In this document: positions 361 to 3,894 of the stretch, one piece after another | Layout of the letters: each line of letters begins with the position of its first letter | Position numbering within the stretch: position 1 is the stretch's first letter | The notes under the pieces: generated by a model | The model's input: the letters and a program-made list of their open reading frames with translations, nothing else | What the model was told of the DNA's origin: nothing | Database searches by the model: none | From: Leptolyngbyaceae cyanobacterium JSC-12 | Lineage (GTDB): Bacteria > Cyanobacteriota > Cyanobacteriia > Leptolyngbyales > Leptolyngbyaceae | DNA length: 64,000 nucleotides | Assembly (NCBI GenBank): GCA_000309945.1 | Contig: CM001633.1 | Location: 2,576,292-2,640,291 of the forward strand | Direction: 5' to 3' | Translations under genes and position numbers: made by a program

Positions 361-1062
361 CTATACGGCTGCCAGTTCAGGACGCTTGCTGTTGCGCACC
401 CCTTCGATCGCAGCTTTGTAGTCGGGTGCGTTAAACACAGCAGAACCTGCCACAATTGCGTTGGCTCCAGCCTCTAGCACCTGCCAGGTATTGTTGCCTT
501 TCAATCCACCATCCACTTCAATCCAGGGATCTAGCCCCCGCTCATCACACATTTCCCGCAACTTGCGGATTTTGGGCAGAACTCCAGGAATGAAGCTTTG
601 TCCTCCAAACCCTGGGTTAACGCTCATAATCAACACAATGTCACAAAGTTCGAGCACGTAGTCGATCAAATCCAATGAACTTCCTGGATTCAGCACAACG
701 CCTGCTTTTTTGCCCAATTCCTTAATTTGTCCCAACACGCGATGAATGTGAGAGGTTGAACTTGACTCAGCATGAACCAGAATGTGATCGGCTCCGGCTT
801 TGGCAAAATCAGCCACATATTTTTCGGGTTCTACAATCATTAAGTGAACATCCAAGGGCTTTTGGGTTACAGGGCGCAGCGCTTCCACCACCAATGGACC
901 AATCGTGATATTGGGGACAAACCGTCCGTCCATGACATCGACGTGAATCCAATCTGCCCCAGCCAAATCCACGGCTCTTACTTCGTCTCCCAAACGGCTG
1001 AAATCGGCTGATAGGATGGAAGGGGCGACAACAATCGGTTTCTTGGATGGGGTCTGGATCAT
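361..1062 (-). CDS. rpe: Ribulose-phosphate 3-epimerase
   Basis: Interconverts D-ribulose 5-phosphate and D-xylulose 5-phosphate in the Calvin cycle and the oxidative pentose phosphate pathway (cytosol). The 233-residue length is normal for the family. The TIM-barrel landmarks are visible: [13 protein letters not shown] near the N-terminus, the metal/acid region [12 protein letters not shown] (about residues 41-52), HLMI(V)[15 protein letters not shown] (about 144-156) and EVDGG followed by AGSAVF near the C-terminus. The ATG at 1062 has an AGGAG ribosome-binding site about 12 nt upstream. It is transcribed alone and ends at a hairpin terminator. Its product, xylulose 5-phosphate, is a substrate of the phosphoketolase encoded at 36.5 kb. 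Confidence 0.97.
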
Positions 1063-1380
1063 GGGGTGCGTGTCTCCTAACGGCTGAGTGTAGTTGTTTT
1101 AACAATTTAACAAACTGTGACAGGTTTCTCAGATAGCAGATAGTGGTGCCTTAGATGTTGTAAGCCAGAAAAATGTGAGCACTACTATTCCAGTCTAGGA
1201 ATAATTGCCTATCTATGCAATTGATTGGATAAATTGCCGCAATGTTGAAAAGTCTCCTGGAAAGACAGAAATCTTTTGCAAATTACCCTTATGTAGTTAG
1301 GGTGGTGGCTATGCGATCGCCCTTTCTCTCTTTTAGCAAGCAGGTTTTAGCTTTTAGCAAGCAGGTTTTAGGCGGGTAGC
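1063..1380. other. Divergent intergenic region between rpe and the S8 protease gene
   Basis: This 318-bp stretch holds no credible gene. It must contain the promoters of rpe (leftward) and of the protease gene (rightward). Its only distinctive structure is a 21-bp tandem duplication at 1330-1371. A HIP1 octamer lies near 1314. Confidence 0.6.
1330..1371. repeat. 21-bp tandem duplication upstream of the S8 protease
   Basis: Two exact copies of a 21-bp unit beginning CTTTTAGCAAGCAGG (1330-1350 and 1351-1371), ending 9 nt before the ATG at 1381. The duplication lies in the leader of the protease mRNA and no canonical Shine-Dalgarno sequence is evident between it and the start. Confidence 0.85.
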
Positions 1381-3162
1381 ATGATGCAGCATTTACTGTT
1401 AATCCAAAGACTGGTTTGGTGGTGGGAATTCATTCTCAATCGAGTTGTGATTTCTGCTGGAATAGGGTTACTGGGAATTGGGTATCCTAATGTAGCGATC
1501 GCGCAATCATCCAGCCCATTCCAGGCATCAGACACCCAAAAAACATCGCTCAAACCGTTACCGCCTAGTTCCATCGGCTCAACCGGAATCGATGCCTTGC
1601 GACTGCACCATCCTCCTTACAACTTGACAGGACGAAAAATCGCGATCGGGCAGGTGGAAATCGGTCGTCCAGGTCAGTTTGGAATTGATAAAGCCGTTGC
1701 TAAAAATCGCTCCATGACTTTGACCCGTGTCTTCTACCGCGATTCACGCGCTCGCATCAACACGAATGTAGACAGCCATGCCCAAAACGTTGCCAGCATT
1801 ATGATTAGTTCCTCTAAAAGTGTGAAGGGGGTGGCACCGGGAGCACGATTATTTTCCTCTGCTGCTGGGACTCCTCGTCGCTATGGACAGCCAGAGGAAT
1901 GTCTATCGGCACAGCACATTGCTATGCAAAATGGGGGAGATGTGCGAGCCATTAATCTGAGTTTTGGAGAATCGTTGCGCCATGACCCGCGTCCCAATGC
2001 CCTCCTGGATGGCAATGCGTTGTTGACCCAGTGTTTAGATTGGTCAGCACGAGTACATAACGTGTTGTACGTGGTAGCAGGTAACCAGGGTAAAGGTGGA
2101 ATTTCCATTCCAACAGACAATTTTAATGGCATGAATGTAGCCTTCACCAATCGAATGCAGGGCGTGTTTGCCAGGGTCGATTTTGCTAATTTGGGTGATC
2201 CGGCATTGGGAGCGCTTGAAGGTGTGGAAAGTAATGTGGGTCCAAGGCGGGCGATCTCGCTCGTGGCACCGGGCAGCGACATTCCCATGGTGAACCCAAA
2301 TGGAACAATCACAATGTCGAGTGGAACCAGTTTCGCTGCTCCCCATGTCACTGGGACAGTCGCTCTGTTACAGGAATTTGGCGATCGCCAGCTTCGTGCC
2401 CTATGTAAACGAAGAGGAGGTTGCTCGGAACCGTGGACCGTGGTAGCACGACAAGCTGAAGTGATGAAAGCGGTGCTGCTTAACTCTGCCGATAAAATCA
2501 AAGATACTGGCAATGGGCTAGCACTAGGCATGAGCCGCACTATTGTAGACAAGGCAAACCGTACCTGGCTGGAGTCAGAAGCCTATCGAGATCCTCAAAT
2601 ACCACTCAATATCCAGATGGGTTCTGGGCAACTGAATGCCTTCCGTGCCTACCAACAGTTTAGCCCTGGGCAATGGAGTCCTCAAAAAATGGTGCCAGCG
2701 ATCGGGTGGGATTATCGGACGGTGGGGAGTCGGAGCGAGGTGGAGAAAATGGGGAAGCGTAGAAACCCTCAGCCATCGGCTATCTCCAATCTGCAACTGC
2801 CTACTTATCGGGATTATGCGTTAGAGAAGCCTCTTAAGCAGGGGAGCTTTGTCTCTATTACGTTGGCATGGAATCGGTTGGTGGAACTGGCAGATGCTAA
2901 CCAGAATGGTGAGTATGACTTGGGGGAAGAATTTCGCGATCACGGCCTGAATAATCTTGACCTCTACTTCATGCGTCTAGAAGACAACGATCCGCAACAA
3001 AGTGTGTCATCTTCGATCAGTGCAGTTGATAGCGTGGAGCACATTTTTGCTAAAGTGCCGATGACTGGACGATACAAAATTCGAGTGCAGTTTCGCGATC
3101 GCCGGAATGAACCTATTCAGCCTTATGCCCTTGCCTGGTGGACTGTTCCTAATAGACCGTAA
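1381..3162 (+). CDS. Secreted S8 (subtilisin-like) serine protease with Glu at the catalytic acid position
   Basis: 593 residues. An N-terminal hydrophobic segment ends in AIA-QSS, a likely signal-peptidase site near residue 41. The peptidase core shows His133 in VDSHAQNVAS, the oxyanion Asn235 in VAGNQGKGG, and the nucleophile Ser317 in SSGTSFAAPHVTG. At the first catalytic position, where subtilases carry D in a VIDTG-type strand, the sequence reads IAIGQVEIGRPG, putting Glu93 where Asp is expected. The C-terminal part (about 400-593) looks like a beta-sandwich. It carries an EF-hand/dockerin-like calcium loop, DANQNGEYDLGEE, and resembles the domains appended to secreted cyanobacterial proteases. 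Start: ATG ATG at 1381; either is possible. The substrate is unknown. Whether Glu93 supports catalysis cannot be judged from sequence alone. Confidence 0.88.
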   Translation: MMQHLLLIQRLVWWWEFILNRVVISAGIGLLGIGYPNVAIAQSSSPFQASDTQKTSLKPLPPSSIGSTGIDALRLHHPPYNLTGRKIAIGQVEIGRPGQFGIDKAVAKNRSMTLTRVFYRDSRARINTNVDSHAQNVASIMISSSKSVKGVAPGARLFSSAAGTPRRYGQPEECLSAQHIAMQNGGDVRAINLSFGESLRHDPRPNALLDGNALLTQCLDWSARVHNVLYVVAGNQGKGGISIPTDNFNGMNVAFTNRMQGVFARVDFANLGDPALGALEGVESNVGPRRAISLVAPGSDIPMVNPNGTITMSSGTSFAAPHVTGTVALLQEFGDRQLRALCKRRGGCSEPWTVVARQAEVMKAVLLNSADKIKDTGNGLALGMSRTIVDKANRTWLESEAYRDPQIPLNIQMGSGQLNAFRAYQQFSPGQWSPQKMVPAIGWDYRTVGSRSEVEKMGKRRNPQPSAISNLQLPTYRDYALEKPLKQGSFVSITLAWNRLVELADANQNGEYDLGEEFRDHGLNNLDLYFMRLEDNDPQQSVSSSISAVDSVEHIFAKVPMTGRYKIRVQFRDRRNEPIQPYALAWWTVPNRP

Positions 3163-3201: not shown

Positions 3202-3813
3202 TCAAAACCGATAGCCAACTCCCAATTGATACCGTACAGGTGGTGTTCCCGTGCCCTTATTGCTAGAGAGCCATTTGGCATCCCCGTACAGCACAATCCC
3301 TTTGTTGATTTCTGTCTCTAATCCTGTAGTCACAACGACTCCTGTGCGATCGCCCAAAGGAGTCGTTTTACCAGCAGATGTGTTGACAATAGCAACTCCT
3401 GCACCAGCATAGAAATTGGTACTACCACCAACTGGAATATCGTAGGTAACGACAGGCATCACTGCTCTGGAATTGTCTCCGAAATAGACAGACCCGCGCA
3501 CGGAAAGGGGGGAATTTGGAACGTCGTACCGTCCTTGAAATTGTGCTCCAACTGCGGGGTTGGTTTGTAGACTGGCTGTTGCATTAAAGTCTGGAGTAAT
3601 TCCGGTTGATTTGAGGGCTTGCTGCATGGCGGCATTCGCAAGATGTTCGGGAGATGTCACCAGTGCTGGGTTTTGTTTCAGCAAGTTGCTTAAATCTACT
3701 GGAATCCCTGCATAGCTGCCTTGTAAACCAGGTTCGGCGATCGCATCTGGCATCGCGACAACGATCGCGATCGCCGTCATGAGCAAGCTTCTCAACCCTA
3801 TGTCGAGCTTCAT
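3202..3813 (-). CDS. Small outer-membrane beta-barrel-like protein
   Basis: 203 residues from the ATG at 3813, chosen because GGGAGG lies 11 nt upstream and because this start gives a clean signal peptide (basic N-terminus, hydrophobic run, AIA-EPG cleavage site). The mature part has alternating beta-strand patterns rich in Gly, Tyr, Val and Asn, such as RYDVPNSPLSVRGSVYFG and TNFYAGAGVAIVN. It ends in YQLGVGYRF, with the C-terminal aromatic residue typical of bacterial outer-membrane proteins recognised by BAM. It is probably an 8-10-stranded barrel of unknown cargo. It converges with the S8 protease gene 39 bp away and is separately transcribed. Confidence 0.7.
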   Translation of the reverse strand: MKLDIGLRSLLMTAIAIVVAMPDAIAEPGLQGSYAGIPVDLSNLLKQNPALVTSPEHLANAAMQQALKSTGITPDFNATASLQTNPAVGAQFQGRYDVPNSPLSVRGSVYFGDNSRAVMPVVTYDIPVGGSTNFYAGAGVAIVNTSAGKTTPLGDRTGVVVTTGLETEINKGIVLYGDAKWLSSNKGTGTPPVRYQLGVGYRF

Positions 3814-3894
3814 CACCAAATGAACCTCCCAATGAAAAAGCGCTGGCAAATTCTTACGCAAGCCAGGTTATGCCGTCCGGGAGATTTTTTATTA

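What the first reader, a model, noticed from the sequence alone, without database searches (positions are those of the whole stretch)
1381..3162. Secreted subtilase with Glu in place of the catalytic Asp
His133, Asn235 and Ser317 are in standard subtilase contexts, but the strand that should bear Asp reads GQVEIGRPG, with Glu93 at that position. A Glu-containing triad is known in sedolisins (S53), not in typical S8 enzymes. The protein is also fused to a C-terminal domain with an EF-hand-like loop (DANQNGEYDLGEE). It may be a catalytically tuned or regulated variant, or an inactive binding protein.
Basis: partly seen in the sequence, partly recalled or inferred. Interest (0 to 1): 0.55.

Follow-up and report, generated by a model that had tools for sequence, protein, structure and literature searches.

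The report
Cyanobacterial Glu-His-Ser subtilisin-like protease
This is a secreted cyanobacterial protein-cutting enzyme of the subtilisin type whose usual catalytic aspartate is a glutamate; that variant type is already known, but here nature swaps the two residues among close relatives, and the gene often sits next to one for a protease inhibitor.

Summary
The ORF at 1381-3162 (593 aa) is a secreted subtilase with Glu93 at the catalytic-Asp position, and the residue is conserved: 99 of 112 orthologue rows have Glu and 13 have Asp, while His133, Asn235 and Ser317 are invariant. Three alignments to Asp-type subtilases put Glu93 in the Asp column. A model (pLDDT 72) matches subtilisin BPN' (Z 26.7) with Glu93 ending the strand that normally bears Asp. 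All 13 Asp rows come from one family of genomes nested inside the Glu tree; one species there has Glu again. This natural E93D experiment argues for an active enzyme. So this is a new member of a known kind. What looks new: in 22 of 49 sampled genomes that carry both genes, a secreted serpin with an inhibitory-type hinge lies downstream on the same strand within 10 kb. A cognate protease-serpin pair is plausible but untested. In the window's own genome the serpin is 2.8 Mb away.

The parts
1381..3162 (+). E-H-S subtilase gene, 593 aa plus stop
   Evidence: ORF; PF00082 64.4 bits; model Z 26.7 to subtilisin BPN'
1381..1503 (+). Sec-type signal peptide, about residues 1-41 (...VAIAQ); cleavage site judged by eye
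   Evidence: sequence; N-termini of 42 family rows read by eye look like signal peptides
1558..2700 (+). subtilisin-fold catalytic domain, about residues 60-440; no room for an I9-type propeptide before it
1657..1659 (+). codon of Glu93, at the catalytic-Asp position
1777..1779 (+). codon of His133 (catalytic His)
   Evidence: invariant 112 of 112
2083..2085 (+). codon of Asn235 (oxyanion Asn)
   Evidence: invariant 112 of 112
2329..2331 (+). codon of Ser317 (nucleophile, in GTSFAAPH)
   Evidence: invariant 112 of 112
2740..3159 (+). C-terminal beta-sandwich, weakly PPC-like, with EF-hand-like loop D505-E516
   Evidence: PPC below its cut-off, E 0.0025 on the domain alone; 11 of 13 members match PPC at E<=0.05; KP-43 aligned through it
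361..1062 (-). divergent neighbour: ribulose-phosphate 3-epimerase (rpe); conserved neighbour, not claimed as part of the mechanism
   Evidence: PF00834 290.5 bits; homologous gene present in 78 of 106 loci

Best explanation
A secreted (periplasmic or extracellular) serine protease of the subtilisin fold that works with a Glu93-His133-Ser317 triad and Asn235 in the oxyanion hole, that is, an E-H-S subtilase. Glu93 does the job of Asp: it orients and charges His133, which activates Ser317. The enzyme carries a C-terminal beta-sandwich with an EF-hand-like loop and has no N-terminal I9-type propeptide. In part of the cyanobacteria a secreted serpin encoded just downstream probably restrains it. 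Shown: sequence, conservation, column placement, fold, natural Glu/Asp exchange, gene neighbourhood. Inferred: catalytic activity, the Glu-His hydrogen bond, calcium binding, serpin control; the substrate is unknown.
For: Glu93 falls in the Asp column against 29 cyanobacterial subtilases (99 of 99 rows; 29 of 29 controls Asp), against 73 viral-contig subtilases (23 of 23; 73 of 73 Asp) and in a local profile alignment. His, Asn and Ser are invariant in 112 of 112 rows. In the model the strand 29-34 ends at Glu93 (model 34), His133 is at the start of helix 73-83 and Ser317 at the start of helix 257-285; Z 26.7 to subtilisin BPN' over 258 residues at 3.0 A. Asp replaces Glu in one family of genomes and reverts in one species. 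A full-length copy is kept in 106 of 386 genomes of the phylum. SprP is a precedent for activity with a putative E-H-S triad.
Against: No activity data for any member of this family. The Glu93-His133 distance could not be measured (no coordinates given), and the alignment fed to the folding job already held Asp-type subtilases aligned at Glu93, so the model is not independent. Without them (13 rows) the model was useless, pLDDT 38. The loop after Glu93 (model 36-50) is below pLDDT 50. Local profile-alignment confidence around Glu93 was low, and the global hhalign run misaligned that region.
Confidence: 0.82

Rival explanations
1. A pseudoprotease: a catalytically dead subtilase fold used for binding or scaffolding, Glu93 being the first step of decay.
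For: Glu is non-canonical; NCBIfam gives weak sub-cut-off hits to CspBA and CspC, non-triad germination proteins, as any subtilase may.
Against: His133, Asn235 and Ser317 are invariant in 112 of 112 rows and Glu93 is replaced only by Asp. Decay would hit Ser or His as readily. SprP shows that a putative E-H-S subtilase can be active.
Confidence: 0.08
2. The catalytic acid is another residue (Asp103), with Glu93 only structural, or both acids act together like the Glu-Asp pair of sedolisins.
For: Asp103 is invariant in 112 of 112 rows and its place in the model is not reliable.
Against: Glu93 and not Asp103 sits at the strand end and in the Asp column. Asp103 stays when residue 93 is Asp, so it does not depend on Glu. 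Its offset (10 residues; 9 in subtilisin between D32 and the Ca ligand D41, recalled) suggests a structural or calcium role.
Confidence: 0.07
3. A sedolisin (S53) relative with a Glu-Asp-Ser mechanism.
For: Glu at that strand is the S53 signature (recalled).
Against: His133 is invariant and the oxyanion residue is Asn235, not Asp; Pfam finds PF00082 and weak PPC only among the 13 members scanned.
Confidence: 0.02

Closest known systems
E-H-S subtilases (Siezen et al. 2007), example SprP (PA1242) of Pseudomonas aeruginosa
   Same: Glu at the Asp position with His and Ser; subtilase domain; signal peptide
   Different: SprP has a 233-residue N-terminal domain and needs autoprocessing (PMC3937732 passages; PMC4618607 abstract and passages). 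The cyanobacterial protein has no N-terminal domain and a C-terminal beta-sandwich. Sequence kinship was not tested (SprP sequence not at hand).
KP-43 alkaline protease (PDB 1wmd)
   Same: subtilisin domain plus C-terminal beta-domain; top Foldseek hit, E 4.3e-18; 377 residues aligned at 3.7 A, Z 25.8, spanning model 7-529
   Different: 19% identity; KP-43 has a classical Asp-His-Ser triad (recalled)
Subtilisin BPN' and Savinase (S8A)
   Same: catalytic fold, Z 26.7
   Different: Asp triad and I9 propeptide (recalled) against Glu93 and no such propeptide
Sedolisins (S53)
   Same: Glu at the strand end (recalled)
   Different: S53 uses Glu, Asp and Ser as its triad (PMC9549277 passage; PMC5371821 passages); here His133 is invariant

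Membership tests
E-H-S subset of subtilases (Siezen et al. 2007) | Glu in place of the catalytic Asp, with His and Ser kept | tested here: met
   definition from PMC3937732 passages; the 2007 paper itself is not held
E-H-S subset of subtilases (Siezen et al. 2007) | sequence kinship with described members such as SprP | not tested
   no SprP sequence at hand; whether the 2007 set held cyanobacterial proteins is not known to me
E-H-S subset of subtilases (Siezen et al. 2007) | proteolytic activity | not testable with these tools
   needs the bench
S8 subtilase (classical D-H-S) | subtilisin fold | tested here: met
   Z 26.7 to 1lw6_E; PF00082 over its cut-off
S8 subtilase (classical D-H-S) | catalytic Asp on the first core strand | tested here: not met
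   Glu93 in the window and in 99 of 112 rows; Asp in 13 orthologues
S8 subtilase (classical D-H-S) | catalytic His, oxyanion Asn, nucleophile Ser in that order | tested here: met
   H133, N235, S317 invariant 112 of 112
S53 sedolisin | Glu-Asp-Ser triad, no catalytic His | tested here: not met
   invariant His133
S53 sedolisin | Asp in place of the oxyanion Asn (recalled) | tested here: not met
   Asn235 invariant 112 of 112
KP-43 type (subtilase plus C-terminal beta-barrel) | two-domain fold | tested here: inconclusive
   377 residues aligned at 3.7 A; the C-terminal part was not folded or searched alone
PPC-domain protein | PF04151 over its curated cut-off | tested here: not met
   19.1 bits against 25.9 for the window's domain alone; 11 of 13 members match at E<=0.05

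The most novel reading that the evidence does not exclude
A protease-inhibitor pair in free-living cyanobacteria: a propeptide-less Glu-His-Ser subtilase whose restraint comes from a cognate secreted serpin encoded next door instead of from its own propeptide, in a family where the catalytic acid has changed from Glu to Asp and back, giving a natural series for asking what Glu does to rate, pH range or serpin trapping.
Probability: 0.3. Interest if true: 0.65.

Novelty: new member of a known kind. Interest (0 to 1): 0.42.

Why it matters
E-H-S subtilases are hardly studied, and SprP is the only characterised one that I met in these searches. This widespread cyanobacterial family holds a nearly fixed Glu, one lineage with Asp at the same site and a single species back to Glu, so the question why a subtilase would use Glu can be tested with natural orthologues. 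The serpin next door gives a concrete candidate regulator; native targets of bacterial serpins are, as far as I know, rarely established.

Tried and rejected
Folding from the 13-row family alignment gave pLDDT 38 and was dropped. Searching viral contigs with the family profile gave no relative, and with own-genome subtilase L002 gave none. Plasmid and phage records hold only generic subtilases, at most 48% query cover and below 30% identity in the rows shown. Global hhalign misaligned the N-terminal part; local hhalign and two MAFFT alignments were used instead. Considered and rejected: Asp71 as the acid (variable); S53 membership; sequencing error (Glu in 99 rows). No S53 entry was seen among the fold matches listed, which is absence in a list only. 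Literature: searches for Glu-triad subtilases missed the precedent; one search found it. Searches for cyanobacterial serpin plus subtilase showed no paper on the pair in their listings; only open-licence PMC is held. Rows dropped before counts: L040 (frameshifted, two fragments), L034 (partial), L261 (same as L097), L005 and L052 (same as the window); 4 of 33 Asp-type control loci failed the motif filter.

Full report
Observation. The ORF at 1381-3162 encodes 593 aa. Residues 90-95 read GQVEIG, with Glu at 93, and residues 133, 235 and 317 are His, Asn and Ser. Pfam matches Peptidase_S8 over residues 120-378 at 64.4 bits against a cut-off of 21.8, leaving the Asp strand outside the match.

Is it more than a one-off? 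One scan of genome contigs gave 36 related loci, all with cyanobacterial titles. A 13-row profile found full-length copies (E below 1e-100) in 106 of 386 genomes sampled across the phylum; the next matches, at about 1e-8, are generic subtilases. Only 3 candidates per genome were scored in most genomes, so single copy is not proved there. In the window's own genome Pfam finds five S8 genes, and the other four read Asp in their motif (by eye). In one family where all candidates were scored, each of 14 genomes has exactly one full-length copy. I read the protein in 70 of the 106 genomes (30 loci, 40), plus the loci and that family.

Conservation. In the final set of 112 distinct rows, residue 93 is Glu in 99 and Asp in 13; Asp103, His133, Asn192, Ser194, Asn235 and Ser317 are invariant. 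In an earlier 102-row set the EF-hand-like loop positions D505, N507, N509, D513 and E516 are kept in 96 to 100 rows, with two rows gapped at each.

Placement of Glu93. Three alignments were made. Against 29 Asp-type cyanobacterial subtilases, 99 of 99 family rows put residue 93 in the Asp column (98 Glu, 1 Asp), and 29 of 29 controls have Asp there (4 of 33 control loci failed the motif filter). Against 73 viral-contig subtilases, 23 of 23 family rows do so and 73 of 73 have Asp. Local hhalign agrees with low column confidence, and the global run misaligned this part. A second folding job on the 96-row alignment gave pLDDT 72.1 and pTM 0.79: strand 29-34 ends at Glu93 (model 34), His133 (74) opens helix 73-83 and Ser317 (258) opens helix 257-285. 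VIA-align gives Z 26.7 to subtilisin BPN' (258 residues, 3.0 A) and Z 25.8 to KP-43 over 377 residues reaching into the C-terminal domain. That alignment contained Asp-type subtilases, so the model does not prove placement independently. Coordinates were not given, so the Glu-His distance is not measured.

A natural E93D series. One genome (G229) had Asp at 93 in the first survey. Searching its family, 14 genomes, gave 13 with Asp and one, G415 (L253), with Glu. In the FastTree tree, built without columns 88-98, the 13 Asp rows plus L253 are one clade of 14 with support 99 and the label needs 2 changes. With 12 Asp-type subtilases as outgroup this clade lies inside an 84-row clade of support 0.996, although several deeper branches have little support. 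The simplest reading is Glu ancestral in the family, Asp gained once, Glu regained in G415. Gln91, two residues before Glu93 and so likely on the same face of the strand, is present in all 99 Glu rows; 5 of 13 Asp rows have Ala there, a possible compensating residue. Exchange between Glu and Asp with everything else of the active site fixed is hard to explain unless the site is catalytic.

Architecture. N-termini of 42 family rows printed, read by eye, look like signal peptides followed almost directly by the start of the catalytic domain, which leaves no room for an I9-type propeptide. The C-terminal part is a beta-sandwich with weak, below cut-off similarity to PPC.

Neighbourhood. A homologue of ribulose-phosphate 3-epimerase lies beside the gene in 78 of 106 loci, divergent in the ordered lists; PF00834 was confirmed on the window's copy. 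A second conserved neighbour, downstream and co-oriented, occurs in 43 of 106 loci (loci overlap between sources and flanks differ in length). It is a serpin: PF00079, 404.9 bits for L010. In the 386 genomes, 67 have a serpin match better than 1e-20 and 49 have both genes (from the tables). In 22 of those 49 the serpin is on the same strand, downstream, within 10 kb (20 within 1.4 kb). By the family codes these are 17 genomes of f7, 2 of f1 and one each of f3, f4 and f15, so independent events are few and linkage may be old and inherited. Of 40 long serpin ORFs printed, 35 show a GTEA-type hinge as in inhibitory serpins (motif recalled); the other 5 run off their locus (some serpins appear twice). 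The N-termini look like secretion or lipoprotein signals, by eye. Results against a tight pair: 57 of 106 protease genomes have no serpin, 18 of 67 serpin genomes lack the protease (7 of them in the same class), and in the window's genome the only serpin is 2.8 Mb away.

Comparison with the known. PMC3937732 (passages) assigns SprP of P. aeruginosa, putative triad E262/H299/S499, to the E-H-S family of subtilases of Siezen et al. 2007 and shows that it is an active protease killed by S499A. PMC4618607 (abstract and passages) adds autoprocessing and a pH optimum of 7-8. The 2007 paper is not held; I recall that its abstract names a Glu-His-Ser subset. So the unusual triad is a known kind and the present family is a member by triad; sequence kinship with SprP was not tested. 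S53 is excluded by the invariant His and Asn. I found no paper linking a cyanobacterial serpin to a subtilase in the listings, which cover open-licence PMC only.

Verdict. Observation confirmed. Most likely an active, secreted E-H-S subtilase. The triad alone is not new; the Glu/Asp exchange inside one orthologue family and the linked serpin are the parts worth following.

Noticed in passing
L007, L009-L023 and other loci; G340, G042, G005, G008, G062, G185, G289 and others: A secreted serpin gene lies just downstream of the protease on the same strand in 22 of 49 sampled genomes that have both genes; it carries an inhibitory-type hinge.
   Followed up: partly
window 361-1380 and 78 of 106 loci: Divergent arrangement with the Calvin-cycle gene rpe is widely conserved; a shared promoter region is possible but was not studied.
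   Followed up: no
L040 5001-6516: The orthologue in this MAG is broken (two frames, in-frame stops in the C-terminal part); pseudogene or assembly error.
   Followed up: no
L254-L266, residue 93 (family f28): Asp in place of Glu in 13 of 14 genomes of one family, with Gln91 changed to Ala in 5 of those 13.
   Followed up: yes
window 3202-3861 (-): Small outer-membrane beta-barrel-like protein downstream (PF13505 26.0 bits, below its cut-off of 28.7).
   Followed up: no
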